From: Prolixibacteraceae bacterium
GTDB taxonomy: Bacteria; Bacteroidota; Bacteroidia; Bacteroidales; Prolixibacteraceae
Assembly (NCBI GenBank): GCA_025355875.1
Contig: JANXYV010000185.1
Coordinates: 1-59,061 of the forward strand
Direction of reading: 5' to 3'
DNA: 59,061 nucleotides
The position numbers and the translations under genes are program-made. Under the pieces are notes generated by a model that worked only from the letters and a program-made list of their open reading frames with translations, was not told the origin of the DNA and did not search any database. Of the stretch, positions 1 to 16,654 are shown piece by piece (position 1 is the first letter of the stretch; the number at the start of each line of letters is the position of its first letter).

Positions 1-35
1 CTTATTAATTTCCAAATTTTCTGTTAATGTGCCCA

Positions 36-1034
36 TTATACTGTAAGGTTTTCAAAAACTGAAACTTCCGGTTGTTGATAGGCTTCACATTGCGAAAGAA
101 TAATGGAGTATTTTACATCACCAACCCCGCTGCGGATCTCATTTTCCTGGATTCTGGGGAAATTGTCCTCAACTTTATAAAATGTATCCTGCCGGATAAT
201 ATAACCAGTGGAATCGTACAAATCGACATGGTGATCAAAATACCCGGCTTCATATAATTTTGACTTGAAGCGGTTCAAAGCTATCGAATCCGTTACCAAT
301 AAATCATTTATCGAAGCGATGATCTGGTTTAATGTTTGACCGCTTTCTTGTACTTTTTCTAAAGAAATATGGTAGAGAAATAGTTTTTCAAGATGCGTAA
401 TATCAAGTTGTCTCTCACTGCTAATCTGTACTTTTTGATGATTATTCCCGTGTGTCGTTTTTACTTCCACTGCCCAGTTATTCATTTGAAAATCTCTTAC
501 TTCTCTGGCAGAACCTACCCAGGAATTTAAAACGAGCTGCAAATTATTATTGCCTTGAAGAAATTTTCGCAAGAAAAATAATTCGCCAAACAAACCTCTT
601 TGCTCTTCAGGTGTCAGACCTTCAGAGATAATTCGTGTGAACAGGGATTTCCATTTTTCAAAACGGTTCAATATCGCTTTTACTAATTGCTTTTCGTTGG
701 TTTCATATGCTATGCTGGCAATTAAGTCTTCACATAAAACAGAAAATATATCCCTATGCTGATTGTTAATCAGTTTAAAAAGTAAAATATTTTTCCCTTT
801 CTGAGTGTGATCCGGTGAAAAATCAATTTGTATTTCCTGTAAGTTATCGAACATCGAAATATTTACCTCTATGCTCTCGCTTATTGACGAGGCAATGCAT
901 AACAATTTTTCTGGCTGCTGTAATGCTACATATACATCTGGCAATACAGATCCGGAATATCGACGCAAAAGCAACCCTTTTTTGAATGAGGTGTCATGTG
1001 CCAGCTCATTCCATATTTGATTAATCTTCGTCAT
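36..1034 (-). CDS. DUF4420 / PD-(D/E)XK nuclease-like protein of defence cluster
   Basis: 332 aa. The C-terminal half shows a restriction-endonuclease-like core: Glu151 in a GLFGEL helix, Asp181 in VRDFQMNNW, then Glu190-x-Lys192 in the strand AVEVKTT. This is the E...D...ExK arrangement of PD-(D/E)XK enzymes, and the overall pattern fits the DUF4420 family found beside Z1 helicase-like proteins. Likely role: DNA cleavage in the defence complex (family knowledge plus inference). Its ATG overlaps the end of the Z1 gene by 14 nt, so the two are translationally coupled. It is the last visible gene of the cluster; only 35 bases remain before the window edge. It could be a structural rather than catalytic partner, but all the motif residues are present. 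Confidence 0.75.
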   Translation of the reverse strand: MTKINQIWNELAHDTSFKKGLLLRRYSGSVLPDVYVALQQPEKLLCIASSISESIEVNISMFDNLQEIQIDFSPDHTQKGKNILLFKLINNQHRDIFSVLCEDLIASIAYETNEKQLVKAILNRFEKWKSLFTRIISEGLTPEEQRGLFGELFFLRKFLQGNNNLQLVLNSWVGSAREVRDFQMNNWAVEVKTTHGNNHQKVQISSERQLDITHLEKLFLYHISLEKVQESGQTLNQIIASINDLLVTDSIALNRFKSKLYEAGYFDHHVDLYDSTGYIIRQDTFYKVEDNFPRIQENEIRSGVGDVKYSIILSQCEAYQQPEVSVFENLTV

Positions 1035-3768
1035 CGTTGTCGTTATCTATTTCGTCATCAATATTGAATAGTGCCAAAAGTTGTCTATGAATAGCATAAC
1101 GTACTGAAGAGTTGAACCGGCTTCCCGGAAAACTTATTGCAAAGCCGACTAATGGGTCACTACCATTGGGAAGGTTAGCCCCTTCTGGGTCTAAAAAGTA
1201 AATTAGCAGCAAAGGATTTCTTGGGTCTCTAAATTCATTTCTGACTATATCTCCTTTCGGATAGTCATTCTTGTACTCCTTGTTATTATGCTGATGAAAT
1301 GCAATCGTCCTTTCTAATGCGGCTCTATATTGTTCTGGTTCTAAATCAACGAACTCATCTTTAGGACTTATGATGTGATTTTTTCTGATGAAAAATGTGG
1401 TAGAATCTGTTCTTTCTGTGGCATTCCGGCGAAACCAATAACCAATATCAACAATATGCCCGTTTTTGTCAATCGGAAATCTTTCATTTGTGTCAGCTTT
1501 TGACATTAATGCTACACTCCAGTTTGTGAGCTCACCGTTTGCAACCTGGACATCTATAAATTGCAATAAGTTGCCTGGATCAACTCTTACCAGGGAATCC
1601 GGAACTTTGAACTTTTGAAATAAAGGCCGAATCAATTCAGGTGATACATTCTTCCATAAATAATTGTTTCTATTGGTTTTAAAAGTAGCATCAAGCGAAC
1701 TTATAAAATCAACAGTAGCATCTAAATTCGATTTTACAACTATAGGATTTTTCTGCAATTGATATGATTCAACCAATCTTCCAGCCCAGGAAATATCAAC
1801 ATTTACAGCCCTGCGAATCTTATTTGATGCGGAAATTTGTAACACTCCTGGATGGGTTCGCACTTTTAAAGCATATTGTTCCGGAGTGCTACCTGCAACA
1901 TCTGACATGTAGTCAAATTCGCTTCTTAATTCTTCTGAAGCCAAAGTGATATGACAAAACCACTCATTCAATTCACTGCTTGTAAAGAGGCGGCATAAAT
2001 CTACATAACCGGGTCTGTAACCGAACCACCTGCCCATTTGCATCAAGGTATCGTACATCCGTGAGGCTCTCAGATAATAACTTACCGAAAGTCCTTCCAA
2101 TGTCAATCCTCTGGATAACTTATCACCACCAATAGCTATAACTGACAAGCCTTTTTTGTGGTCGTAATAGTTTAAGGCATCTGCCGAACCACCATTGATT
2201 TTTTTGACTTGAATTCTGACGGCTGCTTCGCGCAATTGCCTTTGTACCGCCACCCACTCGTGAATTTGGGTTGCGCTGTCAATCCCTCTTAATTCGGTGT
2301 CTAAAATTTGCAGTGAGATTGTTGTATATGATTTATAATTATCTGTATCAACCTCAAACACTTGTCTCATTTCTTCGAGAATCGAGGGTATTTTCATCTC
2401 AATTCCTCTCCGATAAAAATCGAAAGTGTTTTCTACCAGTTCTTTAATATGGTCTTGCCAGTTAATAAACCGACTAACATGTATCAACATTGAATTGTGT
2501 GCAGTCTCTTGACCCCGAAGTCTTCTTATTGCGCAGGTAATAATGAAACTTTTTATTGCCAGTCGCAATGAATCTGGTATCGAATCAGGCAATTCAGATT
2601 CTCTCTTATGACCGTTGGGCACAAAGTTCTGATAATCATCAATCCTGTTTACTATTGGCAATACTTCATCAGAGATTTCATCATCTTCTAAAACCCTAAT
2701 TCCAAAGACTTTTTCCGGACCTATGTAATTTGATGGAGCCTGAATATTGATAATAAAATCTTTAGGGAAAAGCTGGTCTTCTTCAATTGGGATAAAAATA
2801 TTTGCAAAAGGAGTTGCGGTATAGCCCACATAACCACTTTTGTCAAATAGTCTCAAAATATTACGAATGTGTTCATTTATTTTGGTTGATTTATCTTCAT
2901 CCTTGTTGGTGTTTATTGATGCGTTATCCGCTTCATCATCAATCAACAGTAATGATTTATTGTTGATTCTTCTTTCACCTTTTGCATTTGTACTTGCTTG
3001 GGAACTAAGCCATTGATATAGCTTCTCAAGCACTTTTGTGTTCTTTTTTACAACTGCAACTATCGGTTCATTAGTGTTAAAGGTTTGTGTCGTTCTTGCA
3101 CTGAAGTCACCATTATCAGAGCTTGATGTGACCGAATGAACAGGCAGCGCGTTTTTGCCAATTCCTACACCAATTGTATGCTGACCGGTGTTAAATGCCC
3201 TCTGGAATTGGGTATCAAAGCCCAAAAATCCTTCATCTAAGCGAAGCTGTGTTTGACTGCGCAGATTGTTGTGAATACCAGCTAAAACAATTATCAATTT
3301 AAATCCTGCATCGGCAGCCTTACAAATCAGACCGGTATAGTTCGATGTTTTTCCAGATTGTACCTGCCCAACAACTAACCCGTATTTACTGATTAATACA
3401 TTCTGATCGGGATTAAATAACCCATCAAGTGTTCTGTCTGTAAGTTTGTCTAATTGATTTAACACTGCTTCTGGGTAATTCTTTTCATCCTGCAAGTAAT
3501 CTCTATATCTGTTCCAAAAGTTCCATTCAATAGATGTTTTTTTATCATTTATCCAGGGTAACCGGCTTTCTTCTTTTTCAATGATCCGAAACTCATCCAT
3601 GCGAATATTATAGATAGCCTGAACCTCCCGTATTAATGTGGCTTTATCAATTGCTGCAAAATTTGGAACATGCAGCATCTGGGTCACTGCATCTTCAATT
3701 TGTTGTGGAGTAACCGAAGTGGACGCAGGCAGAAATATCCTGATTGCTCGTATAGCTTGTTGTATCAT
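1021..3768 (-). CDS. Z1 domain SF2-helicase-like ATPase
   Basis: 915 aa from the ATG at 3768. A TTG at 3780 would overlap the upstream stop and add 4 residues; ATG is preferred. Helicase-type motifs run in order: Walker A GQVQSGKT (about 134-141), Walker B DDEAD (about 277-281), TATP (about 316-319), a GGDKLSRGLTLEG segment (about 547-559) and QMGRWFGYR (about 577-585), which supplies the arginine finger. This order and the length of about 900 aa are typical of Z1-domain proteins, NTP-driven DNA translocases or remodellers known from predicted restriction systems with MutL/MORC-like ATPases and from the mza defence system. It sits between the GHKL ATPase and the DUF4420 nuclease, with gaps or overlaps of only a few bases. 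The tail is acidic (DDEIDNDNDDED). Confidence 0.88.
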   Translation of the reverse strand: MIQQAIRAIRIFLPASTSVTPQQIEDAVTQMLHVPNFAAIDKATLIREVQAIYNIRMDEFRIIEKEESRLPWINDKKTSIEWNFWNRYRDYLQDEKNYPEAVLNQLDKLTDRTLDGLFNPDQNVLISKYGLVVGQVQSGKTSNYTGLICKAADAGFKLIIVLAGIHNNLRSQTQLRLDEGFLGFDTQFQRAFNTGQHTIGVGIGKNALPVHSVTSSSDNGDFSARTTQTFNTNEPIVAVVKKNTKVLEKLYQWLSSQASTNAKGERRINNKSLLLIDDEADNASINTNKDEDKSTKINEHIRNILRLFDKSGYVGYTATPFANIFIPIEEDQLFPKDFIINIQAPSNYIGPEKVFGIRVLEDDEISDEVLPIVNRIDDYQNFVPNGHKRESELPDSIPDSLRLAIKSFIITCAIRRLRGQETAHNSMLIHVSRFINWQDHIKELVENTFDFYRRGIEMKIPSILEEMRQVFEVDTDNYKSYTTISLQILDTELRGIDSATQIHEWVAVQRQLREAAVRIQVKKINGGSADALNYYDHKKGLSVIAIGGDKLSRGLTLEGLSVSYYLRASRMYDTLMQMGRWFGYRPGYVDLCRLFTSSELNEWFCHITLASEELRSEFDYMSDVAGSTPEQYALKVRTHPGVLQISASNKIRRAVNVDISWAGRLVESYQLQKNPIVVKSNLDATVDFISSLDATFKTNRNNYLWKNVSPELIRPLFQKFKVPDSLVRVDPGNLLQFIDVQVANGELTNWSVALMSKADTNERFPIDKNGHIVDIGYWFRRNATERTDSTTFFIRKNHIISPKDEFVDLEPEQYRAALERTIAFHQHNNKEYKNDYPKGDIVRNEFRDPRNPLLLIYFLDPEGANLPNGSDPLVGFAISFPGSRFNSSVRYAIHRQLLALFNIDDEIDNDNDDED

Positions 3769-3776
3769 AGTGGGGA

Positions 3777-5249
3777 TCAATTAATAAACTCTAAAAAATG
3801 GGTAAAATGGTTGAATGGGTCAATGTTGGCAATTATAGCCTTTGCTTCCTCTGGTGTTTTACCTTTTGATAGTAAGCTGGCAAACATCGTTTCCATGGTT
3901 TTTCTTATCGGTTCGTGATCTATTCCTTCAAATGGATTGCCTTGCGTTTCTGGTTCTTCTGCTGCTTTTATATAAATAGATTTAGAAGGAATATTTTCTT
4001 CGATGAACCGGATTAATGTTTCTATTGCTTTGTCAGGCTCTGTTTGCGCCTGCAATTTTGCCATATCCAATAACGGATGTTCTCTATTTATTTTGTAAAA
4101 CCATTTATCACCTCTTTTGTGATCGATCCAGAGCGGAACAAACTTCTGACCATTGGTTTGTTTTATTGTTTTTCCCCTATGTCGGTATACCTCGACACCC
4201 TGCGCTCTTACTTTGGTAGCGTAGTTTTTAATCTGATCTTTATAAATAAGTGGTGGACGTGCCACTGATTTTTTAATGTCAATCTGCCAATCAGCATCTA
4301 ACGAATTGGGAATATCAATCTGAATTCTGATGAGCTTATAATGTTCTTCTTTTCTGAACAGGCCCAGCCAGTCACCTGATAATAAAAGTCTCTCATTTCT
4401 GTAAATGTAAAAACCCTGGTGCTCGTTCCACCCTTTTGTTCCTTCAGCATACTTATAAGTCTCTTCATCAATTTTAGATTTGTGAGGCAAAACAAATCCT
4501 TTGATAATTACTTTGCCATTATGCAATTGTTCTTCTGAAAAGGATTGGGTAGCTTGTTCGCTCTGCAAAAAGGGATTCCAGGGTTTTATTTCGTTGTCCT
4601 GAAAGTAGATTTTTATTTTTTTGTTCTCAATAAACCGGTGAAATACCATCGCCAAATGCTTTTTCACCATTTCCATGATAAACAAGAATTTATCCAATGC
4701 ATTGTTATCGTTTTGCCGGAAATGTTTCACTACTCTGTCAATGTCATTCCAAATAACCAACGTACCGGAACCAAGTTCTGTCAAGGCATTTTCATTAAAA
4801 TTCGCAGGTAAGTATTTAAGTAAATCCCAATTGCCAGTTTGATTCACATAGTCTAAATCCCATGTCCAGAAAACACTTGAATTGTCTTGTTTTTTCGATA
4901 AAACGGTTAACTGACGTGTCTGTGAGAAAGATGCTGTTTTAAGTCCTAATCCAAATCTACCCAAGTCTTTTGAACTTCTATCTGCCAATGGGTTTTTGCT
5001 GCCTGGGCGCATTGCCTGGATAAGTTCTTCATTGTTCATTCCGTCACCGTCATCTTTAATAGATAACCAGGTATCGGCACCTTTCCAGTCAAAGTTAACC
5101 CATACATTTTTTGCATTGGCCGAAATCGAATTATCTATAATATCGGCAACGGCAGTTTCAATGTTATATCCAATTGCCCGGAAGGTCTCAATCATTGACG
5201 AGGCTTCGGGTATCGCCGGGGTGGTTTGGTATTTGGAGAAGTCTATCAT
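3777..5249 (-). CDS. MutL/MORC-like GHKL ATPase of defence cluster
   Basis: 490 aa starting at ATG 5249. The N-terminus has the full GHKL (Bergerat) fold: an N box with ADIIDNSISANA (about 35-46), G1 motif DDGDGM (66-71) and G2 motif GRFGLGLKTAS (97-107). The roughly 300-residue remainder resembles the transducer region of MutL/MORC-type proteins. It carries no histidine-kinase H box and no MutL endonuclease motif that I can see. Such ATPases dimerise on ATP and clamp DNA. Paired with Z1 and DUF4420 they form the core of mza-like systems and of the R-M systems from which eukaryotic MORC proteins were proposed to derive. The stop lies 8 nt before the Z1 ATG. It is probably the first gene of a sub-operon, since 141 bp separate it from the gene upstream. 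Confidence 0.85.
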   Translation of the reverse strand: MIDFSKYQTTPAIPEASSMIETFRAIGYNIETAVADIIDNSISANAKNVWVNFDWKGADTWLSIKDDGDGMNNEELIQAMRPGSKNPLADRSSKDLGRFGLGLKTASFSQTRQLTVLSKKQDNSSVFWTWDLDYVNQTGNWDLLKYLPANFNENALTELGSGTLVIWNDIDRVVKHFRQNDNNALDKFLFIMEMVKKHLAMVFHRFIENKKIKIYFQDNEIKPWNPFLQSEQATQSFSEEQLHNGKVIIKGFVLPHKSKIDEETYKYAEGTKGWNEHQGFYIYRNERLLLSGDWLGLFRKEEHYKLIRIQIDIPNSLDADWQIDIKKSVARPPLIYKDQIKNYATKVRAQGVEVYRHRGKTIKQTNGQKFVPLWIDHKRGDKWFYKINREHPLLDMAKLQAQTEPDKAIETLIRFIEENIPSKSIYIKAAEEPETQGNPFEGIDHEPIRKTMETMFASLLSKGKTPEEAKAIIANIDPFNHFTHFLEFIN

Positions 5250-5390
5250 TGAATTTAGTTAGGGTTGGCTTGCACTCCAACTAATTTGAATTGAAGTGAA
5301 CATTATTAATTTGGATTTAATGTTTTAGTTGGCTTTAAATATATTGAAAGTTGGTAAGATTATGATTATTTTAACTCGGATTCATTGTTT
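5250..5390 (-). promoter_or_regulatory. Intergenic gap splitting the defence cluster, possible internal promoter
   Basis: This is the only gap over 50 bp within the nine-gene stretch 36-10818. It is AT-rich. On the minus strand there is a near-match to the Bacteroidota -7 box (TATATTTA at 5343-5336), but no convincing TTG element. It suggests that the GHKL-Z1-DUF4420 trio can be transcribed separately. The evidence is weak. Confidence 0.3.
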
Positions 5391-6158
5391 TCAATTTACA
5401 AAGACTACACCTGATCGATTAACATGAGAGCCTAGCTTTATTTGAATATCTGAAAGTAGTTGTTGTTTCAACCTACATTTTACTATTTTCTCCTCCATTT
5501 CCTTTTTGACAAGTGAGTATAAAAATCGAAAATCGAAAAGAAAAAGGTAATCAACATTGTCAATTCTAAAATCAGCATCGGATATGTAAAGATAGGAAGG
5601 TGCGAAATTTAAGTGCTCACGGTAACCCGATTTAATCATTACGCCAGGTAAGATTCTATATCGCTTAGCTTTTTCTTGTGCATAATCACAAAGTGGTGTG
5701 ATGTTTAGCTCAATCGAAACGACTGTTTCTAAAATTTGTTTTATTAAAACCTCGTCTGAATATAAGGATTCCTTTAGTGCAGAAACTGTTATTTCATTAA
5801 TCGTTTTCTTAGAACTTGCAATTGCTTCTTTTATCTTTTGTTTTTCATATTTATAGCTTTTTTCTATACCCGATAATGCGTCTTTCTGTTCTGCTTCAGG
5901 AATTCTAGATATACCGGTTTTGCGTTTGATTAAATCATCTTCATTTTTACAATTTCTAATTTGTATTTCCATATCAGGAGAAAACAAGTTGCCCGGTTGT
6001 GTAACATCATCATTTCCATCACTTATTAGTAATAACTTATTCATTACAGTAGTGAAATCATCAATATGTTGCTCTGTACTACTTATAAGGTCTGAAAAGG
6101 ATTTGTTTATTAATTTATCAATAGAATTATCAATATTGTCAGTAAAAGTTAAGGTCAA
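5391..6158 (-). CDS. Unknown protein between receiver and GHKL genes
   Basis: 255 aa if the TTG at 6158 is used; family not recognised. The reading frame stays open and looks coding upstream of that codon, past the receiver-gene stop at 6203, but no ATG or GTG appears there. A rare start or coupling to the upstream gene is therefore possible. The protein has no signal peptide or membrane segment. The middle (about 95-150) is Lys/Glu-rich and probably helical. The C-terminal third has a hydrophobic strand pattern (YLFLFDFRFLYSLV) and ends in a compact segment SHVNRSGVVFVN. Its place directly behind the receiver gene makes it a candidate output or effector of the kinase/receiver pair. That is inference from position only. 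Confidence 0.6.
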   Translation of the reverse strand: MTLTFTDNIDNSIDKLINKSFSDLISSTEQHIDDFTTVMNKLLLISDGNDDVTQPGNLFSPDMEIQIRNCKNEDDLIKRKTGISRIPEAEQKDALSGIEKSYKYEKQKIKEAIASSKKTINEITVSALKESLYSDEVLIKQILETVVSIELNITPLCDYAQEKAKRYRILPGVMIKSGYREHLNFAPSYLYISDADFRIDNVDYLFLFDFRFLYSLVKKEMEEKIVKCRLKQQLLSDIQIKLGSHVNRSGVVFVN

Positions 6159-6202
6159 GGTATACAGAGCATTCTTTAGTTGCTGTATCTCATCAAAATT
6201 CT

Positions 6203-6817
6203 TTACTGTTTTCCAGAATATGCAACAGCAAGCTTGTATAGTAAAAACTTAGTCTTATTATCCCATTCTGTATTCGGAGGATATAGGGACGCTATTTCAT
6301 TCGTTAATTTTCCAGAAGACTCATTTACGATTGATTCCCAGATTAGGAAGGCATTAAATGATTTGAATTTCGAAATCTCGATTTTAAGTTCTTTTTTAAT
6401 TTTGTCCATTGCCCCTTTCTTTCCAATTATGTCTGCTTTTGGCAATGATGTGTGAAAGATTGGTTTATATGCGCTGAATTCAGTTTCAAAGTCATCTAAT
6501 AAGGCTTGTTTATATTCATTTTCCTTTTTGCTCCAAATAATAAGAGCATAAGCGGTATGGGGTTTAAGTACCCTCATTAATCTAGTTTTAATTGGACTCG
6601 TAATGTTTTTCACAGATATATAAGTATCCGTAATCAGCTCCAGATCTAAAAAAATTAAACGAACATTTTCGATAGGTGTATCTGGTAAATCTGATAAATC
6701 TTCCTCTTTGTAATGAACAAAAGGAACTTTTTCCTTAGATAGAGCAGAAATCAGTTCTATTACATCTTTAGGTTGATCATCAATTATTACAACTTTGCCA
6801 TTATTGGGTAAGATCAT
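6203..6817 (-). CDS. Receiver (REC)-domain protein of defence cluster
   Basis: 204 aa from the ATG at 6817; a longer frame upstream lies inside the kinase gene. The first 60 residues show the receiver signature: strand 1 with the acidic pair Asp13-Asp14 (VVIIDDQ) and strand 3 with the phospho-acceptor candidate Asp58 (LIFLDLE). A later strand ALIIWSKKE stands where the conserved Thr/Ser normally lies. The normal KP loop is not obvious, so this is a divergent receiver. The C-terminal 70 residues are an unknown helical domain with no recognisable DNA-binding motif. The start is 2 nt from the kinase stop, so the genes are coupled and probably work as a pair. It is unlikely to be a classical transcription regulator. 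Confidence 0.75.
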   Translation of the reverse strand: MILPNNGKVVIIDDQPKDVIELISALSKEKVPFVHYKEEDLSDLPDTPIENVRLIFLDLELITDTYISVKNITSPIKTRLMRVLKPHTAYALIIWSKKENEYKQALLDDFETEFSAYKPIFHTSLPKADIIGKKGAMDKIKKELKIEISKFKSFNAFLIWESIVNESSGKLTNEIASLYPPNTEWDNKTKFLLYKLAVAYSGKQ

Positions 6818-6819
6818 AA

Positions 6820-8994
6820 TTAGATTTTTTTGATTTTTAGCGCAACTAAAGCGCCAGTCCAAAACTCTTTAGGAATATTATATTCTCTATGGTCAGGGAA
6901 AACAACTTCGCCTTCCTGTGATTTCATTAGAAGATAAACAATGTGTAACCCTAATCCCATTCCGTATATTTTTGTTGTGATGAATGGATGGGTCACTTGA
7001 GAAGTTGGTATCGAAAATCCAGTGCCATTATCAGCAATGAGGATACTGTAATAACCCGAGGAATCTTCTACTAAATCAATAAAAATTTTCTTTTGAAAAG
7101 TTAAACCTGTTTTGTTCAACTTTTCTTCCTTAACATGAAGCCAATGAATAGAGTTATCTAATATATTTACAATTGCCCCAAGTAAAAATCTCTTTGAACA
7201 TTTCCCTATTAATGTATTTTCAACCTCTCGAAAAGAACTAACAATTGCTATGTTATGTTTCAATAATCGATATTCTACATTAAAAAGTGAAATGTCAATC
7301 AATTTCGTAATCTCGTTCTCATCTTTGCCGTTGCTTCTTAAGATAGTTGAGTAATTTTCCATTAAGGTGTCAATGCGCTTAACAAGCTGCTTAATTTTTT
7401 CAGGAACATCCTCATGTTCAATCAACGCATTCGCTTCGGCAACTACCTTTTCAATTTCGTGTAATCCAATTGCAAGAGTTAAGCCAGCACCTGCACTTGT
7501 TAAAAGGGTTTCTTGAATTCGAAGATAATCATTCTCAACTTTCTCTATTTGTTTGGTAATTTGCGCGTTATCTTCTACGTTTGTTATTTTTTCATCTATC
7601 AGTTCTTTTAAAACCCCTAAGTGATGAATAACAGGTTCAGCCTGTTCTCTTTGACCGTATTTTGATCGTATTTCCGATTTATCAATTTCCCGTAGTTTCT
7701 CAACTAATTGAACAACATGAAGAATTGCTGCCTTAAAATCATGAAAGGCTTCGTTTTCAATAAATCCTTCACGATTAGTTTTTTCTTCGAGTGCTTTAGA
7801 ATTTTCTCTTTTAACGTCAATGACAGATAGAATAATATTATTGCTTATCTTTCTAGTAGGTTCGTTAACCCGTCTACTATCCAAGTTTAACCAATCATTC
7901 CCTTGTTCTCCATACTCATTTATTCTAATTCCCTCACGGTAGACCCTAACACCACCCTGCTCATCAAGATATTCTTTCAAAAGATTTAACCCAGGATAGT
8001 TATATAATTCAAGAATATTTTTGTCTCGATCAAAAATATAGCCCTCAATTTCAATAGGTCCTATCTTTTTCTCTTCCTCATTATTGTTTGCATAATTCTT
8101 TTCTAGATTGATTGTTCTATATTCTTTTTTTGTTCCAGGAATCTTTTCTTCTATCGTTTCGTTATCTATTATTATGACATTTTCTTGGGTTATTGATCTT
8201 TTTTCAATTTTATACAACTCTGGCCAGGGGGTAAAATTATATTCAAATTCAGTAATACTCGAACCCTCTAACTTGCATTTAAAATTAAAAAGTGCAAAAT
8301 GTTTAATACTTTCTAATGTTGGAAGATCAGCAATTAGTTCAGGAGTAGATAACTCTAATTTGACATCAAAATTTCCGCTTCGCTTAAAAGGTGATTGCAA
8401 ACTAAATACCGATTTATAGAGATCTCTCACCATCCTCTTATCCCACACTGTCCTCAAGTCTGTTATTCGTATTCTTGTTCCTGTTCTGTTCCTTTTAAAA
8501 TATTCAGGATCTGTATTTTCATAGACTTCGAATTCCGAATCTTTAAGATATTTTTTTTGACCAAATTTCTTCCAATCAATTTTAACTACAACCTCATTAC
8601 AATCTTTTTTTCTGCTAATTAGCTCAATTGTGTAGCCTAATTTATGTACTCCAAATCTCCCTATACCTTTTTCACCAATTGGCAATCTTTTGAATCTGGG
8701 GGTTCTTATGTTCTTTCTAAATATCTCAGCTTTATAATCACTGCCTGGTTCAAGCCAAACATTTTCAATAATATCCATATCCATCCCCTCCCCATCGTCT
8801 ATGACATCGATAATCCCCTTCTCTAATGTTTCGATATTATCAAGTCTTACAATTACAGTTCTTGCGTCTGCATCGTAAGAATTTTTAATTAATTCTAGAA
8901 GTGCAATGTTTTCGTTACGGATTAATTTATCTCCTAATTGAAGGAGTAGTCTGGCACGCGGTTGAAACGAATTTTTTTTTGAAAATAATTTCAT
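6820..8994 (-). CDS. Dual GHKL protein: MutL/Hsp90-like N-domain plus histidine-kinase-like C-domain
   Basis: 724 aa from the ATG at 8994. The N-terminus has one Bergerat ATPase: ELIKNSYDADA (34-44), DDGEGM (66-71), GEKGIGRFG (107-115). A long helical region follows and contains a possible H box, AIGLHEIEK with His512. Then comes a second, kinase-type ATPase with N box NILDNSIHW (610-618), G1 DNGTGF (655-660) and G2 GMGLGL (678-683). Two complete ATPase sites in one chain are unusual. The second half is laid out like a sensor histidine kinase (helical DHp-like region, then HATPase_c) but has no membrane segment, so it would be cytosolic. It lies 1 nt after the methylase gene and 2 nt before a receiver gene. 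Likely role: a sensor that binds DNA or partners through the first domain and signals through the second (inference). Confidence 0.85.
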   Translation of the reverse strand: MKLFSKKNSFQPRARLLLQLGDKLIRNENIALLELIKNSYDADARTVIVRLDNIETLEKGIIDVIDDGEGMDMDIIENVWLEPGSDYKAEIFRKNIRTPRFKRLPIGEKGIGRFGVHKLGYTIELISRKKDCNEVVVKIDWKKFGQKKYLKDSEFEVYENTDPEYFKRNRTGTRIRITDLRTVWDKRMVRDLYKSVFSLQSPFKRSGNFDVKLELSTPELIADLPTLESIKHFALFNFKCKLEGSSITEFEYNFTPWPELYKIEKRSITQENVIIIDNETIEEKIPGTKKEYRTINLEKNYANNNEEEKKIGPIEIEGYIFDRDKNILELYNYPGLNLLKEYLDEQGGVRVYREGIRINEYGEQGNDWLNLDSRRVNEPTRKISNNIILSVIDVKRENSKALEEKTNREGFIENEAFHDFKAAILHVVQLVEKLREIDKSEIRSKYGQREQAEPVIHHLGVLKELIDEKITNVEDNAQITKQIEKVENDYLRIQETLLTSAGAGLTLAIGLHEIEKVVAEANALIEHEDVPEKIKQLVKRIDTLMENYSTILRSNGKDENEITKLIDISLFNVEYRLLKHNIAIVSSFREVENTLIGKCSKRFLLGAIVNILDNSIHWLHVKEEKLNKTGLTFQKKIFIDLVEDSSGYYSILIADNGTGFSIPTSQVTHPFITTKIYGMGLGLHIVYLLMKSQEGEVVFPDHREYNIPKEFWTGALVALKIKKI

Positions 8995-8995
8995 A

Positions 8996-10237
8996 TTATT
9001 TTTTAAATAAGGTCTTCGCAATATATTCAGCCATTAAAGTAGGTACCGCATTCCCAATTTGTTTAAATGCGGCAGTTCTGTTTTGTCCTTCCTTTACTCC
9101 TTCAAAATAATAGTTATCTGGAAATGATTGTAACCGCGCTGCTTCACGCACGCTTATTGAACGATTTTGCTCAATGTCAGGATGTATATAGTAATGACCA
9201 TCTTTAGCGATATGAGCAACTACAGTATGTGAATATTCTAAATCCTGAGCAACAACTTTAAAACGATCAAAAAATGAATGTCGGTTTTTATGTGTTTTTA
9301 AAACTTCCGGAAGGTCATTATAATCAAGTCTTTGTCCTTTATTATTCCATTTATCTACGGCAATACGATATATTTTTTTATCCTGTTCAGAGTGTGGTCG
9401 GGCAATATGTTGAGTTAAAATATCGATTCCATTACGTACTGATTTCTGATCAAGATATTCATTGGTATCAGCTCTATATTTGACAAACTTATCCACACCT
9501 TGTCCGGCACTAATTTTTGGCAAATCATTAAAAATGCTATCAACCTTAAAATCAGTTTGCATACGAACGGATTCCAAATCCGGTAAATCCGGGTTGATAT
9601 CTTCTCTCCAACCAAGTATAATTATACGCCTGCGATTCTGCAATACCCCAAAGTTATTGGCTGCAAGCGTATATAATCTCATTTTGTAGCCCTTCTTTAA
9701 AAAGAGCTTCTCCATGTTTTGAAGGTATGTGCCTTTTTTTGCCGATTTTAATCCAAGTACGTTTTCAAAAACAAAATATTTCGGTTTGTATTTTTCGAGA
9801 TATTTCGCATATTGAACATAGAGATGATTCCGGGGATCACTCTTCATACCATCTTCAGACCTTGCTCTTCCAACCAGTGAATATGCCTGGCAAGGCGGTC
9901 CTCCTATTATAAGATCCACTTCCTGTCCATTAAGCTGTTCTGAAATTAAGCTGAAGATGGTTTCATTGAATTCGGTTCCAATAGGGAGATTAATTACGCT
10001 ATCTAGTAATTTGACAGGGATATGATTGTATAATTCTGACCTCTTAATTTCACCTTTTAGATAGGCATAATATATCTCAGACTTGTTATTTGATTTCAGA
10101 TAATGAAAAGCTAATCTGGTTTTTATCGTATTACAAGCGGCCTTATCCATCTCGACATGAGCAACAGGGTTAAAACCTGCTCTTAGAAATCCTTCAGAGA
10201 GGCCGCCAGCACCAGCAAATAGATCAATGTAATTCAT
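8996..10237 (-). CDS. DNA (cytosine-5)-methyltransferase
   Basis: 413 aa with the ordered m5C methylase motifs: I DLFAGAGG (5-12), IV GGPPCQAYS with catalytic Cys116, VI FVFENV (about 156-160), VIII QNRRR (200-204), IX SVREAARLQSFPDNY (about 362-376) and X IGNAVP (394-399). It transfers methyl from S-adenosylmethionine to C5 of cytosine in a specific site. The target recognition region (about 210-355) does not let me name the site. The start overlaps the vsr gene by 14 nt. It presumably marks self DNA for the nucleases of the cluster. The pairing with Vsr supports a 5-methylcytosine product, since Vsr repairs the T:G mismatches made by deamination. Confidence 0.95.
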   Translation of the reverse strand: MNYIDLFAGAGGLSEGFLRAGFNPVAHVEMDKAACNTIKTRLAFHYLKSNNKSEIYYAYLKGEIKRSELYNHIPVKLLDSVINLPIGTEFNETIFSLISEQLNGQEVDLIIGGPPCQAYSLVGRARSEDGMKSDPRNHLYVQYAKYLEKYKPKYFVFENVLGLKSAKKGTYLQNMEKLFLKKGYKMRLYTLAANNFGVLQNRRRIIILGWREDINPDLPDLESVRMQTDFKVDSIFNDLPKISAGQGVDKFVKYRADTNEYLDQKSVRNGIDILTQHIARPHSEQDKKIYRIAVDKWNNKGQRLDYNDLPEVLKTHKNRHSFFDRFKVVAQDLEYSHTVVAHIAKDGHYYIHPDIEQNRSISVREAARLQSFPDNYYFEGVKEGQNRTAAFKQIGNAVPTLMAEYIAKTLFKK

Positions 10238-10637
10238 CCAGTAACTTGATTAGAGTATTATTAAGTTTATCAGTTTTAAGTTGACATTCAAAAATAGTTA
10301 CAATTTTCCAACCGGATTCTGATAATTGGAGAAAGTTTTCAGAATCCCTTTGTTTAGTGCAATTAATCTTATCTATCCACCATTCAGTTCTGGTTTTGGG
10401 CATGACGTAGTACTTGCAATTTTCATGACCATGCCAGAAACACCCATTTATAAAGATGATTGTTTTGTATTTTGGAAGTATTAAATCAGGTTTGCCGGGG
10501 AGGTTTTTTACATGAAGACGGTATCTAAAGCCTTTTGAAAAGAGAAATTTTCGAACCAACATCTCCGGCTTTGTATTTTTGCCTTTGATCTGGCTCATGT
10601 TATAACTTCGGGTTTCTTTGTCGTGAACATCTGTCAT
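10224..10637 (-). CDS. vsr: Very short patch repair endonuclease (Vsr)
   Basis: 137 aa, the usual length. It carries the opening MSQIKGKNTKPEMLVRK motif and the catalytic region PGKPDLILPKYK with Asp51, followed by FINGCFWHGHENC, whose His and Cys residues contribute to metal and zinc binding in the family. It nicks 5' of the T in T:G mismatches left by deamination of 5-methylcytosine. The overlap with the methyltransferase gene couples repair to methylation, as in many m5C systems. The start is 1 nt after the stop of the upstream small HTH gene. Confidence 0.95.
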   Translation of the reverse strand: MTDVHDKETRSYNMSQIKGKNTKPEMLVRKFLFSKGFRYRLHVKNLPGKPDLILPKYKTIIFINGCFWHGHENCKYYVMPKTRTEWWIDKINCTKQRDSENFLQLSESGWKIVTIFECQLKTDKLNNTLIKLLDELH

Positions 10638-10638
10638 A

Positions 10639-10818
10639 CTATTTACCCTCCCTTAACTTCTCAAACACCCAAACTGCCAATTTTGCCCATCGTGGTATAT
10701 CCGACCTATTTAATACCGTTCGGATACTATCATTGCTGTTTCCAGTAATTTTAGCAATATCCTCATAGGTCCAACCAAAATGTTGCTTCATCCGGTCAAA
10801 CCTTTGTTTCCAGCTCAT
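10639..10818 (-). CDS. Small HTH-like protein, possible controller of the R-M operon
   Basis: 59 aa, found by translating the gap between its neighbours. The TGATG junction overlaps the stop of the 75-aa gene by 1 nt, and the stop lies 1 nt before vsr. The middle reads YEDIAKITGNSNDSIRTVL, a helix-turn-helix-like pattern (D-I-A-x-I-T-G-N-S-x-x-S-I-R-T-V-L). It is followed by IPRWAKLAVWVFEKL, a basic/aromatic helix. Small HTH proteins at the head of restriction operons often act as controller proteins. Here that role is inferred from pattern and position. Exact coupling on both sides argues that it is a real gene. Confidence 0.7.
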   Translation of the reverse strand: MSWKQRFDRMKQHFGWTYEDIAKITGNSNDSIRTVLNRSDIPRWAKLAVWVFEKLREGK

Positions 10819-11045
10819 CAGATTGAGAAGATTTCTAATTCAGCCTTGAATAACAAGGAATAAAACTCTTTTTTCTGATTGGGATCGTCAAATTCATGAT
10901 CAAATACTTCTGTTTCATCCACTCGTAAAGTAAATTCTTTCCCTTCTCTATTTGTGAATGAAAATGGAATACTGATTCCATCATTTTTTATTTCCCTTGT
11001 GCGGGGAAATTGATTGTCTGAATTAACCAACAGATAATTTTTCAT
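10818..11045 (-). CDS. Small unknown protein, first gene of defence operon
   Basis: 75 aa, acidic in its second half, with no recognised domain. The ATG is at 11045. Its stop overlaps the HTH start in a TGATG junction, so it is the promoter-proximal gene of the cluster. The sequence reads like a small beta-rich protein (FSFTNREGKEFTLRV). The function is unknown. Regulator partner, antitoxin-like protein and passenger are all open. Confidence 0.55.
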   Translation of the reverse strand: MKNYLLVNSDNQFPRTREIKNDGISIPFSFTNREGKEFTLRVDETEVFDHEFDDPNQKKEFYSLLFKAELEIFSI

Positions 11046-11599: not shown

Positions 11600-11603
11600 A
11601 CAA

Positions 11604-13073: not shown

Positions 13074-14918
13074 TTAGTCTAAATCCGTTGTTTCCTTGAA
13101 ATCCTGAGTTTCCTTATTTGTAACGTTTACATCGGCGATGGATAGATTCGTGTAGCAATTCTGTTGTTCCCGAAAGACTAATCCTTTATCGCAAAAGCTG
13201 GTAATATATCCTTCGGCTGTTTTTTCAGGAATAGATAAACTGCGGGCTAAATCCAGATAATTTTGCCTGTTGAACTTCACCGGTAATTTATCCAGAAATT
13301 GTTCCTTTCTGTTTTTGAGCTTTGCTGGTTTAATGTCTTCAGGCAATTCTGAAAATACATGACTGGAATGTTTTACCAGAATGCTGATCATTGAAAGTGC
13401 AGATTGAAAATCATCATCAGAACAAAAATGCATTTCAGACAAATCTCCTGTGTCAAGAATTCGCAAGGAAGAAAAAATCATGGCAATCCGAAAAGCAATC
13501 AAACCTAAGCGACGTATGGTTGCCATATAATCCATTCCCTGAAGACTCAGGTATTTTTCCTGCACCTGTGAGAAAAATGTATTAAACTGGTCTTGCTGCT
13601 CTGGTGTAAGGCAAAATTGAATGGATGGATTTGCATTTAATGCCTTGTAAAGTTGGAGAAATTCATTGCCCAAATTATCGAAATACTCATCCAGACTGTG
13701 ATCGCTATTCGACGCAAAAACATTTTTCCATATCGGTTTGATGTTCATAAAATAAAAGATAAAGCGGCTGAACAAACCATTCTCCGCATTCGGAATCAAA
13801 CTTGAAACCTGTTTTGGAGTGCCGGAAAGAACAGTTGACAGGCAAGGATTGTCAATATCCACATATTCGCGGTCAGTCCGACGGTAATACGAGATTGTTT
13901 CATGGTGATATGCCTTCCGGAATCCATCGCTGTAATTGCCATAATCTGTTTTAAATGCCTGGGCTAAAGTGTCACCTTCAGTTTCAAAAATCAATCCTTT
14001 GCCATCGTTGTCGGAGAGTAATTGAAAAACTCCGGTTGTACTGTTATTGGCCGGAATAAAAAGCATTTTTTCGGGTGGCTTCATCGGCTTTTCCGTGCTA
14101 TTGTCTTTTCCCTTTGCTGAATTGTATTCTCTCATCTCATTTTCATATTGCAACTTCAGCAATCGTGCCTGTTCCCTTAATTCAATATGAACCGGTTTTA
14201 CCAATTGTTTGCAATGAACTAACCTCCCTTTTCCGGCGGATGCCTGGGCAGTAATGAATAAGTAAAGATTTGGATAAACTTTTTTGCCGTCATACAGTCC
14301 GTAAACTTTTGGAAGGCAGGCACTAATTGCAACCAGTGCGCCCAAAAGCAAAATATCCCGTTCTTCTTTTGAATCGGCAACTTCAATTACCCTTTGAAGA
14401 AAATCAGGAATTACCGGAAAGATGGATTCGGGAAGATTCGGCAAATCAACAGAATCAATTTTTTCCTTTGACGCAGAATACATTTTTTCGGTAAACGAAG
14501 CTGTTGTTTCCGGTATGATCTTATTCGATGGAACTGCGTTGGTACGAATATCAATACCCGCCAGTTTTGCGACATGGAAAAAGGTTTTCAGGCTTACTCC
14601 CTGTCCTTTTGCTTTCAGGCAATGGTCGTATTGTTTGTTGCAATCGGATATTGAGAATTTGGGATAAAATCTGCTGATTCGAAGGTAATAGTCCCGGCCA
14701 GCTTCACCCAGTTCATCAGCGAAGGCAAAACCGATATCCCGCCAATCGGAATAATTGGAGGTAATGTCGGTTTGAGCGGCTTCGATGCGAGAAACGACGA
14801 GTTCAATATCAAGCCTCACCCCCGGCCCCTCTCCAATTGGAGAGGGGAGCGGTTGCTGAAGTTCTGGCGTTGTTGTTGCTGCCTGCAACCAATCTTTGGG
14901 ATTGAATTTTTCTTTCAT
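13074..14918 (-). CDS. PriCT-2 / DUF3987 primase-helicase-like protein
   Basis: 614 aa from the ATG at 14918. The frame is open further upstream (TTG at 15020) and right back to the stop of the next gene. Residues about 37-125 match a PriCT-2 domain (SDWRDIGFAFADELGEAGR; CNKQYDHCLKAKGQG). The following region is DUF3987-like, with a P-loop-like AQASAGKGR and an aspartate/glutamate-rich core. Such proteins replicate integrative elements together with BT4734-type primases. Residues 23-36 (PLPSPIGEGPGVRL) are encoded by an inserted palindromic repeat, so they are a linker of mobile origin. The homologous upstream domain lies in the next gene in the same frame; see findings. Confidence 0.8.
   Translation of the reverse strand: MKEKFNPKDWLQAATTTPELQQPLPSPIGEGPGVRLDIELVVSRIEAAQTDITSNYSDWRDIGFAFADELGEAGRDYYLRISRFYPKFSISDCNKQYDHCLKAKGQGVSLKTFFHVAKLAGIDIRTNAVPSNKIIPETTASFTEKMYSASKEKIDSVDLPNLPESIFPVIPDFLQRVIEVADSKEERDILLLGALVAISACLPKVYGLYDGKKVYPNLYLFITAQASAGKGRLVHCKQLVKPVHIELREQARLLKLQYENEMREYNSAKGKDNSTEKPMKPPEKMLFIPANNSTTGVFQLLSDNDGKGLIFETEGDTLAQAFKTDYGNYSDGFRKAYHHETISYYRRTDREYVDIDNPCLSTVLSGTPKQVSSLIPNAENGLFSRFIFYFMNIKPIWKNVFASNSDHSLDEYFDNLGNEFLQLYKALNANPSIQFCLTPEQQDQFNTFFSQVQEKYLSLQGMDYMATIRRLGLIAFRIAMIFSSLRILDTGDLSEMHFCSDDDFQSALSMISILVKHSSHVFSELPEDIKPAKLKNRKEQFLDKLPVKFNRQNYLDLARSLSIPEKTAEGYITSFCDKGLVFREQQNCYTNLSIADVNVTNKETQDFKETTDLD
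14811..14850. repeat. Palindromic repeat inside the DUF3987 gene
   Basis: It contains a 22-bp perfect palindrome at 14826-14847 (CCCCTCTCCAA and its complement) with the lead-in GCCTCACCCCCGG. It is read through in frame and contributes residues 23-36 of the protein. Same family as the copies in the ilv and mta regions. Confidence 0.8.
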
Positions 14919-15068
14919 TGCGCCGGAATTTAAAAGATTATCAGGCATAACAGGGAGAATTTCAGAAGGATATCTGCATAGAAAAAGAGGAATGGCAGGA
15001 CAGTCCACCAAAGCGGCCAATTTGAGGATGCCATTTTGAATAGCACCTTCAGCAAAAATGAACAGTAT

Positions 15069-16025
15069 TTATTTGGTTGCATGACATTTTGAATTTGGTG
15101 TTTGCGAAAACGAACATTTTAAATAATTGGGATTGATGTAAACCATCGGATCGTGCGGCAGGAAACAAGCCCGTGAAATATCTTTTCCGGATTTGTCAAC
15201 CTCCAACTGGTAAGTGGCTTTGATGTACGCAGCAATGGCCTGAAACCATTCCTGATGACTACATTCCTTTAGATCAATTGAGAGAATCCATTTCAAACCG
15301 TCGCCGGAAGGTGAAACAAACATCAACTCCGTTTCAAAAAATCTATCACTCAACAAGATTTCCCGAAACTCCACCAAGTTTGAAACATGATCGAAATCGA
15401 GCGTTATCAGGCCGGAATGTTTGATTAATGCAGCATCATTTCGCTTTAAAAATATTCCGGAAAAAGTCACATAGTCAAAGTTTCTGGCTTTGTATTTACG
15501 GGCGGATTCGGGCTCTCTGATACTTCGCAACTCTTCTGTCTGACGTTTGTATCTGTTGCTTTTTATAGCTCCATAAACATCGAGAATAGTCATTTCAGCA
15601 TTCGGTTGTGTGTTTGTCACCGGGCACCTGAAATAGCTGAATTTTGGAAGTGCAACATCTGATCCTGGCTCCAAAATTTTTCGTTTTTTATTTATGTAGA
15701 AACCTTTTTGTTCTCCGATAGACAAATTCATGTCCTCATTGATCTTGTGCAACAATTCCTGTCCGCTTAACTGGTACTGATGTGCTGCAAAATCGAATGG
15801 ATTTCCTTTAAATTCAGGCAATTCAGCATCTTCGAAATAGAAGATCCAGTTTTGATTGCTGATATTCAGGGTCACTTTGTTCCCATTGAACGGATTTCGG
15901 GTCGGCTTACATGTTTTTCCCGAAAGTTCAATTACTACTTCATCCGGGTAATATTTTCGCAGAATGTGTGCGTAAATATTTAATCCATAATGAGTATCGT
16001 GCAAAATATCCTTTTCCTCAATCAT
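15069..16025 (-). CDS. BT4734/VirE-N-type primase-like protein
   Basis: 318 aa from the ATG at 16025, which overlaps the HTH gene upstream by 8 nt. The longer frame above it is the shadow of that gene. The C-terminal half has the BT4734-like/VirE-N signature: GLITLDFDHV with two metal-ligand Asp residues, MFVSPSGDGLKW, and DISRACFLPHDP. These are the acidic and Ser/Gly motifs of primase-polymerase-like folds. It probably primes replication of the element together with the DUF3987 protein. The TAA stop at 15069-15071 is in the same frame as the downstream gene. Confidence 0.8.
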   Translation of the reverse strand: MIEEKDILHDTHYGLNIYAHILRKYYPDEVVIELSGKTCKPTRNPFNGNKVTLNISNQNWIFYFEDAELPEFKGNPFDFAAHQYQLSGQELLHKINEDMNLSIGEQKGFYINKKRKILEPGSDVALPKFSYFRCPVTNTQPNAEMTILDVYGAIKSNRYKRQTEELRSIREPESARKYKARNFDYVTFSGIFLKRNDAALIKHSGLITLDFDHVSNLVEFREILLSDRFFETELMFVSPSGDGLKWILSIDLKECSHQEWFQAIAAYIKATYQLEVDKSGKDISRACFLPHDPMVYINPNYLKCSFSQTPNSKCHATK

Positions 16026-16311
16026 GGTTTTGGCGTTTACTGGTTCCGGAATAATTACTTTCGAGTATTGCTTCCAGATCGGAAACCTTGTAAAAGAACT
16101 TTCCGTTGAGGCGGGAAAACGGTAGAGTGCCTGAATCGCGTAACGACTGTAAAGTTCGTTGGCTGATATTGAGGGCAAGCAAAATGTCTTGCCCATCAAT
16201 CCAGGTTTCGTTAAATATCTCGGCTCGGGTTTTCTTCAGGTATTGAAGGTGAGCTTTGATTTCCTTCAATTCGCCGGAAAGGTGAAGAATGGCTTTTACA
16301 ATCTCTTCCAT
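16018..16311 (-). CDS. HTH_17/excisionase-type DNA-binding protein
   Basis: 97 aa. An N-terminal helix (about 1-30) is followed by a MerR/Xis-like winged helix: WIDGQDILLALNISQRTLQ, then LRDSGTLPFSRLNGKFFYKVSDLEAIL. The order of helix-turn-helix, wing Gly-Lys and a C-terminal helix is typical of the helix-turn-helix domain proteins at the core of Bacteroidota elements. The start overlaps the previous HTH gene's stop (TAATG). Likely regulator or excision factor. Confidence 0.8.
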   Translation of the reverse strand: MEEIVKAILHLSGELKEIKAHLQYLKKTRAEIFNETWIDGQDILLALNISQRTLQSLRDSGTLPFSRLNGKFFYKVSDLEAILESNYSGTSKRQNHD

Positions 16312-16613: not shown

Positions 16614-16642
16614 TTTAACTGATTTAAAGAGTTAATAAATGA

Positions 16643-16654
16643 GCCTCCGGAGGC
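16643..16654. repeat. Perfect 12-bp palindrome GCCTCCGGAGGC
   Basis: It lies in the 141-bp gap upstream of the HTH pair, about 30 bp before the first start. The position suits an operator for one of the HTH proteins or a short hairpin after the 691-aa gene. Untested. Confidence 0.4.

What the first reader, a model, noticed from the sequence alone, without database searches (positions are those of the whole stretch)
36..11045. Composite defence cluster: m5C methylase + Vsr + kinase/receiver pair + GHKL-Z1-DUF4420
Ten minus-strand genes, nearly all overlapping or within a few bases, combine two modules seldom described together. One is an m5C R-M/Vsr unit with a small HTH protein. The other is the MutL-like ATPase / Z1 / DUF4420 core known from mza-type defence and from predicted R-M systems with MORC-like ATPases. 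Between them sit a dual-GHKL kinase-like protein, a receiver protein and an unknown 255-aa protein. The genes I recall as the other mza members (such as AIPR) are not here. This may be a distinct defence system in which the methylase marks self and signalling gates a Z1/nuclease machine.
Basis: partly seen in the sequence, partly recalled or inferred. Interest (0 to 1): 0.88.

Follow-up and report, generated by a model that had tools for sequence, protein, structure and literature searches.

The report
Kinase plug-in inside restriction-defence operon
A bacterial DNA-defence operon carries a built-in two-protein signalling relay, and a few other bacteria have put a similar relay into similar operons, which suggests that some restriction systems may be switched on by phosphate signalling rather than always being armed.

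Summary
All ten minus-strand genes are there, but two points of the finding change. (1) AIPR is not absent. The window is a whole contig that ends 12 codons into an AIPR gene; the same genome holds a complete AIPR behind a 90%-identical Z1/DUF4420 stretch on contig C96. (2) The "receiver" and the "255-aa protein" are two halves of one response regulator, separated here by a frame change. Vsr–m5C–MutL–Z1–DUF4420–AIPR is one common, already predicted cassette, not two modules. The unusual part is a 3.6-kb kinase/receiver plug-in between m5C and MutL: a same-family genome has the cassette without it. The kinase fuses a MORC-like ATPase to a histidine-kinase core whose His is kept in 83 of 83 kinases compared. 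Three other loci combine kinase pair and cassette; on the trees the combination needs 3 (Z1) and 4 (kinase) changes. Both halves are known in print; my searches found no description of the combination. Best reading: an ATP-driven, m5C-marked restriction machine with a phosphorelay add-on. Function untested.

The parts
1..36 (-). First 12 codons of an AIPR (MzaE-like) gene cut off by the contig end; its ATG overlaps the DUF4420 stop codon
   Evidence: same start and spacing as the complete AIPR on G000:C96; the C96 AIPR: PF10592 E 3.2e-93, AIPR_N 5.8e-32; window is the whole contig
36..1034 (-). DUF4420 PD-(D/E)XK nuclease-like protein, 332 aa (MzaD-like)
   Evidence: Pfam PF14390 E 4.6e-83; MzaD 138.8 bits, cut-off 420
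1021..3780 (-). Z1-domain SF2 ATPase, 919 aa (MzaC-like); Walker A and DEAD-type motifs readable in the sequence
   Evidence: Pfam Z1 E 2e-80; MzaC 672.8 bits, cut-off 1500; motifs read by eye from the translation
3777..5249 (-). MutL/MORC-like GHKL ATPase, 490 aa (MzaB-like)
   Evidence: HATPase_c_3 E 5.7e-35; MzaB 439 bits, cut-off 850
5391..6158 (-). C-terminal output half of the response regulator (255-aa ORF), with the C-D-Y-A-Q motif
   Evidence: matches the last third of the relatives' single-ORF response regulators
6203..6862 (-). Receiver (REC) half of the response regulator, 219 aa; acidic pair and phospho-acceptor Asp present
   Evidence: no Pfam family reaches its cut-off
6158..6203 (-). 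Short stretch where the reading frame changes between the two response-regulator halves; open reading continues in another frame
   Evidence: (three-frame reading)
6820..9021 (-). Hybrid sensor kinase, 733 aa: MORC/MutL-like ATPase + transducer, then DHp helices with His521, then HATPase_c
5250..9013 (-). Extent of the kinase/response-regulator plug-in relative to the kinase-free cassette of same-family genome G465
   Evidence: nucleotide homology to L218 runs through Vsr and m5C to about 9013 and resumes near the MutL start (67-nt match, E 0.003)
8996..10237 (-). m5C DNA methyltransferase, 413 aa
   Evidence: PF00145 E 4.8e-60
10224..10637 (-). Vsr endonuclease, 137 aa
   Evidence: PF03852 E 4.3e-34; TIGR00632 over its cut-off
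10639..10818 (-). 59-aa small protein, HTH-like by eye
   Evidence: sub-threshold RWP-RK hit E 0.0085
10818..11045 (-). 75-aa protein of unknown family, first gene of the run
   Evidence: in the loci scanned only itself matched
13074..20068 (-). Neighbouring mobile-element-type genes: PriCT_2/DUF3987, BT4734-like primase, DUF6617, tyrosine integrase 18827-20068

Best explanation
The cluster is a mobile m5C-type restriction system. Vsr, m5C methyltransferase, MutL-like clamp ATPase, Z1 ATPase, DUF4420 nuclease and AIPR form the machine; a histidine-kinase/response-regulator pair has been inserted between methylase and MutL. Proposed working, in order: (1) the methylase marks self DNA and Vsr repairs or nicks T:G mispairs that arise at m5C (established family knowledge, recalled); (2) the MORC-like N-terminal ATPase of the kinase closes on a DNA or nucleotide signal of infection (inferred); (3) its DHp/CA half autophosphorylates on His521 and passes the phosphate to the receiver Asp (residues shown, reaction inferred); (4) the phosphorylated regulator, through its C-D-Y-A-Q output domain, licenses the MutL/Z1/DUF4420 machine, or acts as a separate effector (inferred); (5) the Z1 ATPase drives cleavage of unmarked DNA by the PD-(D/E)XK subunit, as the Z1 protein does in the CglI system (by analogy). 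In the window copy the regulator gene has a frame change: an assembly error, a recent lesion or programmed frameshifting; I cannot tell which.
For: Cassette: in the regions held around 34 Z1 genes tabulated, DUF4420 in 33, m5C in 31 (32 with L195, the other half of locus L197), MutL in 30, AIPR in 26 (28 with L107 and the window's cut-off gene). Plug-in: same-family genome G465 has Vsr-m5C-MutL-Z1-DUF4420-AIPR at 67/75/79/62/60/81% identity (AIPR compared with the C96 copy) and no kinase pair. Kinase: the profile matches solved histidine kinases across DHp and CA (E 4.2e-18), the invariant His lying on their H-E motif (three alignments shown; that this is their phospho-acceptor is recalled); His521, Glu43 and Asn47 in 83 of 83 kinases left after removing near-copies. 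MORC-like front: Foldseek matches Hsp90, SMCHD1 and MORC2/3 ATPase modules. Receiver: PDB response regulators by profile (2qzj, E 5.6e-4) and by fold (mostly probabilities 0.8-0.99 but E 0.008 or worse). Pair with m5C: 32 of 37 strong-clade loci. Combination recurs: L101, L195/L197, L043/L107; the label needs 3 changes on the Z1 tree and 4 on the kinase tree. Chance: in the order sample, excluding the window, about 0.001-0.002 co-located pairs expected, one seen. Z1 biochemistry: CglI (PMC4267653: passages, abstract).
Against: No functional data. Most Z1 cassettes seen lack the kinase pair and most kinase pairs seen lack Z1; in G392 and G215 both occur on different contigs. The chance estimate ignores that defence genes cluster in islands. 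The combination label is not clearly clustered on the Z1 tree (46 of 500 shuffles as low) and not at all on the kinase tree, which is a quick one with L195 and L101 as long branches; changes may be losses. The regulator of L195 lacks the C-D-Y-A-Q half and L101's regulator was not matched by the window-based profiles, so output differs between combinations. Among 35 one-ORF regulators held (near-copies included) a simple pattern finds the acidic pair in 31 and the C-D motif in 29; L114, the one modelled, has D-N for the acidic pair. The window's own regulator is split. The output domain has no assigned function.
Confidence: 0.48

Rival explanations
1. Two separate defence systems share a cassette position and the methylase. 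The kinase/regulator pair works alone with m5C (as on phage contigs) and does not act on MutL/Z1/DUF4420; insertion between m5C and MutL merely keeps both under one promoter.
For: Pair + m5C without Z1 is the usual state: 16 of 16 kinases over 540 bits on viral contigs have the one-ORF regulator next door, 15 of 16 have m5C in the stretch held, none has Z1 (near-copies included); the 9 relatives with E below 1e-120 in the phylum sample have m5C (9 of 9) and no Z1 on the DNA held (two contigs under 9 kb).
Against: Three combinations have the pair between m5C and MutL (window; L101; L195, the last two with extra genes before MutL), while L043 has it beside the cassette; L101 and L195 both have a NOV_C gene between receiver and MutL.
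Confidence: 0.35
2. The pair controls expression: a soluble two-component regulator that sets the amount of methylase or nuclease, as C-proteins do in some restriction systems (recalled).
For: Pair recurs beside m5C genes; PMC8011034 suggests signalling that controls R-M systems, directly or indirectly.
Against: The regulators of the window and of five relatives match no DNA-binding Pfam family; the fold search of one relative shows no DNA-binding output domain among the 50 rows listed that was aligned beyond the receiver part as far as the table tells, which is weak evidence.
Confidence: 0.12
3. A decaying locus: the regulator is frameshifted and the kinase relay is dead in this genome, leaving only the restriction cassette active.
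For: Frame change between the halves; relatives mostly have one ORF (29 of 37).
Against: Kinase ORF intact with the conserved residues; both regulator halves still match the family profile (138.6 and 86.5 bits); the other genes are open; draft contigs can carry single-base errors.
Confidence: 0.15

Closest known systems
m5C-Z1-PD-(D/E)XK(-AIPR) predicted defence system, 'type II' of PMC9523054; MORC/paraMORC R-M operons of PMC2292703
   Same: m5C methylase, Z1 protein of about 925 aa, PD-(D/E)XK protein, AIPR and MORC-like ATPase; Vsr in the Iyer neighbourhoods
   Different: Neither text as far as I read it (passages of PMC9523054; parts 1-3 of 4 of the text of PMC2292703) mentions a kinase/receiver pair inside the operon
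MZA (mzaABCDE) anti-phage system
   Same: MzaB, C and D homologues in the same order, MzaE start and a full MzaE-like AIPR on C96
   Different: All four below NCBIfam cut-offs; no MzaA (sigma factor) match on the window contig; m5C, Vsr and kinase pair instead. Sigma-first loci do exist (L104, L105). The original MZA paper is not held
HEF_HK / Response_reg_2 two-component-like elements (PMC8011034)
   Same: Soluble HATPase_c_3 + DHp-like + HATPase_c kinase next to a cryptic receiver protein, close to m5C and Vsr genes
   Different: Pfam PF19191 and PF19192 did not detect the window pair or the five relative pairs scanned, nor anything on the window contig in whole-genome searches; the paper's main text has no 'Z1 domain', DUF4420, AIPR or mza
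CglI / NgoAVII restriction systems (PMC4267653)
   Same: m5C methylase plus a separate nuclease driven by a Z1-containing SF2 ATPase
   Different: The nuclease is PLD + B3, not DUF4420; the system is three genes, without MutL, AIPR, Vsr or kinase
Recurrent nuclease-protease pairs (PMC12799240; start of the abstract and a term search only)
   Same: A two-gene relay acquired repeatedly by unrelated immune systems
   Different: A protease activates a nuclease there; here a kinase and a receiver
VcSduA, a Shedu-type nuclease with a GHKL ATPase front, formerly paraMORC3 (PMC12137116, passages)
   Same: A MORC-like GHKL module whose ATPase is needed for phage defence
   Different: GHKL fused to a nuclease, not to a histidine-kinase core

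Membership tests
MZA (mzaABCDE) | MzaB, MzaC, MzaD homologues | tested here: inconclusive
   Strong profile hits but 439/850, 672.8/1500 and 138.8/420 bits against NCBIfam cut-offs
MZA (mzaABCDE) | MzaE (AIPR) next to MzaD | tested here: inconclusive
   First 12 codons in the window; complete copy on C96 scores 381.3 of 1050 bits
MZA (mzaABCDE) | Sigma-factor MzaA | tested here: not met
   PADLOC MzaA profile matches C79, C174 and, weakly, C105, none in C102 (the profile also rings in 11 of 14 control genomes)
m5C-Z1-PD-(D/E)XK-AIPR predicted system (PMC9523054 type II) | m5C methylase, Z1 protein, PD-(D/E)XK protein, AIPR | tested here: met
   only the start of AIPR is in the window
HEF_HK / Response_reg_2 pair | PF19191 and PF19192 profile matches | tested here: not met
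   No match at E up to 1; whole genome: PF19192 best E 0.83 on C120, PF19191 best E 0.075 on C36, both below cut-off
HEF_HK / Response_reg_2 pair | Core His in a DHp helix between two HATPase domains; adjacent receiver with conserved Asp | tested here: met
Histidine kinase/response regulator (two-component) chemistry | Phosphotransfer from His to Asp | not testable with these tools
   Residues conserved; the reaction needs a bench assay
CglI-type restriction | PLD-B3 endonuclease subunit | tested here: not met
   The nuclease gene here is DUF4420
Anti-phage defence system | Protection against phage or plasmid | not testable with these tools
   No experiment

The most novel reading that the evidence does not exclude
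A family of MORC-histidine kinase hybrids with dedicated receivers is a mobile, repeatedly acquired plug-in that turns m5C-marked restriction machines (Z1/DUF4420/AIPR type, EcoRII/HNH/MORC type and phage-borne m5C systems) into infection-triggered ones: restriction gated by His-Asp phosphorelay, with a new receiver output domain carrying a C-D-x-A-Q motif.
Probability: 0.3. Interest if true: 0.8.

Novelty: new variant of a known kind. Interest (0 to 1): 0.52.

Why it matters
If the relay gates the nuclease, it would be a restriction system whose arming depends on phosphate signalling by a MORC-type ATPase, linking three poorly understood prokaryotic families (MORC-like ATPases, Z1 ATPases, cryptic receivers) in one testable operon. 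The kinase-free same-family cassette (G465) gives a natural with/without comparison, and the operon on the Hymenobacter plasmid, where the regulator is one ORF, gives test material.

Tried and rejected
AIPR truly absent: rejected. The 255-aa ORF as a separate family: rejected. MazF/PemK-like output domain: Foldseek against viral models lists a PemK/MazF family model at rank 7 (probability 0.99, E 0.033), but profile-profile comparison with 30 PemK proteins gave 0.3% probability, no better than the control profiles (0.1-0.4%, without a positive control); kept only as a lead. The PDB fold search of the regulator lists mainly receiver domains, with a few other folds such as clamp loaders and flavodoxin-like proteins, and nothing that names the C-terminal domain. 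Membership in Response_reg_2/HEF_HK: not met. A second complete copy of the cluster in this genome: only one MutL and one full kinase match, so C96 is a second allele or strain variant of the 3' part, or an incompletely assembled second copy; undecided. An integration repeat in 11000-22000: nothing convincing. A first literature search for Z1/MutL/DUF4420 gave mostly unrelated papers; a BREX survey that turned up (PMC12839542) has no 'Z1 domain', DUF4420, AIPR or paraMORC in its main text.

Rows dropped: seven Z1 loci that I held were left out of the Z1 table and tree (L099, L100, L225-L228, L211; mostly weaker Z1 relatives); six were examined and have no kinase over 330 bits, L211 was not examined; in that table the kinase label of L197 was set by hand because its kinase lies on L195. 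G660 (below the Pfam cut-off) was not fetched. Of 51 plasmid records with Z1 I opened 7 (kinase in 2); of 80 with the kinase (25 listed) I opened 6 (Z1 in 1). Of 37 phylum-sample genomes with a kinase match at 1e-15 I fetched 18 regions, among them the 9 with E below 1e-120. The kinase-linkage count uses 83 of 89 ORFs after removing near-copies and a 9-kb limit that misses L043's Z1; the viral scan kept 80 of 99 relatives.

Full report
What is there. The ten genes are present as described. Reading down the minus strand: a 75-aa unknown, a 59-aa HTH-like protein, Vsr, m5C methylase, dual-GHKL protein, receiver, 255-aa ORF, MutL-like ATPase, Z1 protein, DUF4420. Neighbours overlap by 4 to 43 nt or are separated by at most 141 nt among the pairs measured, which fits one transcript; that is inference, no transcript was seen. 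Next door (13074-20068) lie primase-type genes and a tyrosine integrase, and GC content is lower here than further along the contig, so the cluster probably rides on a mobile element.

The missing AIPR is not missing. The window is the whole contig C102. Its first 36 bases, read on the minus strand, start an ORF that overlaps the DUF4420 stop exactly as AIPR does on contig C96 of the same genome. C96 begins inside a Z1 gene, matches the window over 1,809 nt at 90.4% identity and then runs into a complete 790-aa AIPR. The genome has only one MutL match and one full kinase match, so C96 is either a second allele from a mixed population or an incompletely assembled second copy.

The cassette is one thing. 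In the stretches held around 34 Z1 genes (genomes of the window's phylum and order, and plasmids), DUF4420 was found in 33, m5C in 31, MutL in 30, AIPR in 26 and Vsr in 19 (some absences are contig or stretch ends: L195 supplies m5C and Vsr for L197, L107 supplies AIPR for L043, and the window's AIPR is cut off). Iyer and colleagues described MORC-like ATPases with SF2 helicases, restriction-fold nucleases, cytosine methylases, Vsr and AIPR (PMC2292703; abstract and parts 1-3 of 4 of the text). A language-model study predicted an m5C-Z1-PD-(D/E)XK(-AIPR) defence system with MORC association (PMC9523054; passages). This half is therefore known in prediction.

The plug-in. Genome G465, of the window's own family, has Vsr-m5C-MutL-Z1-DUF4420-AIPR at 67, 75, 79, 62, 60 and 81% protein identity (AIPR against the C96 copy), with about 170 bp between m5C and MutL where the window has 3.6 kb of kinase and regulator; nucleotide homology stops at the end of m5C. 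The Z1 tree puts the window among kinase-free relatives, so a gain in the window's line is the simplest reading, though trees cannot tell gain from loss.

What the kinase is. Its front half carries the GHKL motifs and folds, as a model (mean pLDDT 78), like Hsp90, SMCHD1 and MORC2/3 ATPase modules. Its rear half matches solved histidine kinases through both the DHp and catalytic parts (E 4.2e-18), and the invariant His-Glu aligns with the H-E motif of three solved kinases (that this His takes the phosphate is recalled). Over 83 kinases left after removing near-copies the His is invariant, followed by Glu in 68 and Asp in 11; Glu43, Asn47, Asn619 and Asn623 are invariant too, while the Lys that I took for an S5-type finger (Lys414) is kept in only 51. 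It is a MORC-like ATPase fused to a working-looking histidine kinase core.

What the partner is. In most relatives the next gene is one ORF of about 420-470 aa: receiver, helical linker, C-terminal domain. An ORF spanning both halves is there in 29 of 37 strong-clade loci (L054 only at 14-15 bits); the window and L195 have a receiver-only ORF next; six have another ORF or none. Across 13 relatives the acidic pair, the acceptor Asp and a Lys are invariant, and in the last domain Cys is invariant and Asp and Gln of C-D-Y-A-Q nearly so. In the larger set of 35 one-ORF regulators a simple pattern finds the acidic pair in 31 and the C-D motif in 29. The profile finds PDB response regulators (2qzj, E 5.6e-4); the model of a relative, L114 (pLDDT 74), matches receiver folds with weak E-values. 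The window's two ORFs match the two ends of the family profile (138.6 and 86.5 bits), with a frame change between them. PMC8011034 reports that its starting regulator gene was likewise annotated as two pieces in one strain, which its authors put down to misassembly and/or gene prediction.

How often the halves meet. The kinase pair goes with m5C: 32 of 37 strong-clade loci within 9 kb; Vsr 18 of 37; Z1 2 of 37, or 3 with L043. Weaker kinases do so less: 11 of 46 have m5C. On viral contigs, 16 of 16 kinases over 540 bits have the one-ORF regulator and 15 of 16 an m5C gene, none a Z1 (near-copies included). On three Rhizobiaceae plasmids the pair sits with DEAD helicase, EcoRII-N, MORC-like, HNH and type II nuclease genes plus Vsr and m5C. 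With the Z1 cassette it is found in the window, the Hymenobacter sp. NBH84 plasmid, G559 of the same order and Agrobacterium salinitolerans pDG3-1d. In the first three the pair lies between m5C and MutL (with further genes before MutL in the second and third); in the fourth it lies beside the cassette with an AbiE pair between. Found from Z1 alone, the rate is 0 of 17 and 1 of 15 loci examined; G392 and G215 hold both on different contigs. Excluding the window, chance would give about 0.001-0.002 co-located pairs in the order sample and one is seen, but this null ignores defence islands. The combination label needs 3 changes on the Z1 tree (46 of 500 shuffles as low) and 4 on the kinase tree (all shuffles as low), counts forced by well-supported branches; the kinase tree is a quick one with long rows. 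Scattered labels fit repeated joining; they do not prove it.

Mechanism. CglI gives the best anchor: there an m5C methylase is paired with a nuclease that needs extensive ATP hydrolysis by a Z1-containing SF2 ATPase, and Z1 domains serve its dimerisation (PMC4267653; abstract and passages). The window's Z1/DUF4420 pair plausibly works like that, with a different nuclease. The kinase adds a possible gate: MORC-like sensing of DNA, autophosphorylation, transfer to the receiver, release of an output domain. Only residues and predicted folds are shown; the steps of the flow are inferred. Other combinations carry extra genes between receiver and MutL (NOV_C in two; in one also DUF2971 and a metallo-beta-lactamase-like protein below the Pfam cut-off), which suggests that the output can vary.

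What is known. The kinase/receiver theme next to m5C, Vsr and paraMORC genes is in PMC8011034 (parts 1-5 of 7 read); a term search of its text finds no 'Z1 domain', DUF4420, AIPR or mza, and its Pfam families do not detect the pair here. Searches of the open-licence library (listings of at most 20 papers each) showed me no paper describing the combination; subscription papers and preprints are mostly not held, so absence from print is not shown. I rate it a new variant of a known kind.

Noticed in passing
window 27680-32436: Methanol:cobalamin methyltransferase cluster: MtaB (E 1e-160), corrinoid protein, RACo-type activator and CobW-like protein, unexpected to me in a Bacteroidota-like genome.
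   Followed up: no
L004 (G000:C96) 4136-5169: Behind the AIPR gene, on the other strand, lies a SocA-like antitoxin gene (50.6 bits, cut-off 190) next to a 150-aa ORF with no Pfam family, possibly a toxin-antitoxin pair.
   Followed up: partly
L104, L105 (Neorhizobium and Thalassospira plasmids): Z1/DUF4420/AIPR operons with a sigma-70 family gene before MutL, about the place where the other combinations carry the kinase pair; the slot looks swappable.
   Followed up: partly
L101 5996-6799; L195 6572-7354: Both combinations carry a NOV_C-domain protein between receiver and MutL; the window has none there.
   Followed up: partly
L114-L193 (viral contigs): Eighty loci were kept of 99 viral-contig relatives of the kinase; many weaker relatives have no m5C within 9 kb and are followed by shorter or longer unassigned ORFs, possibly other receiver types.
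   Followed up: partly
window 50149-52260 and 56974-59061: Two elongation-factor-G-like genes in one window (by eye from the translations).
   Followed up: no
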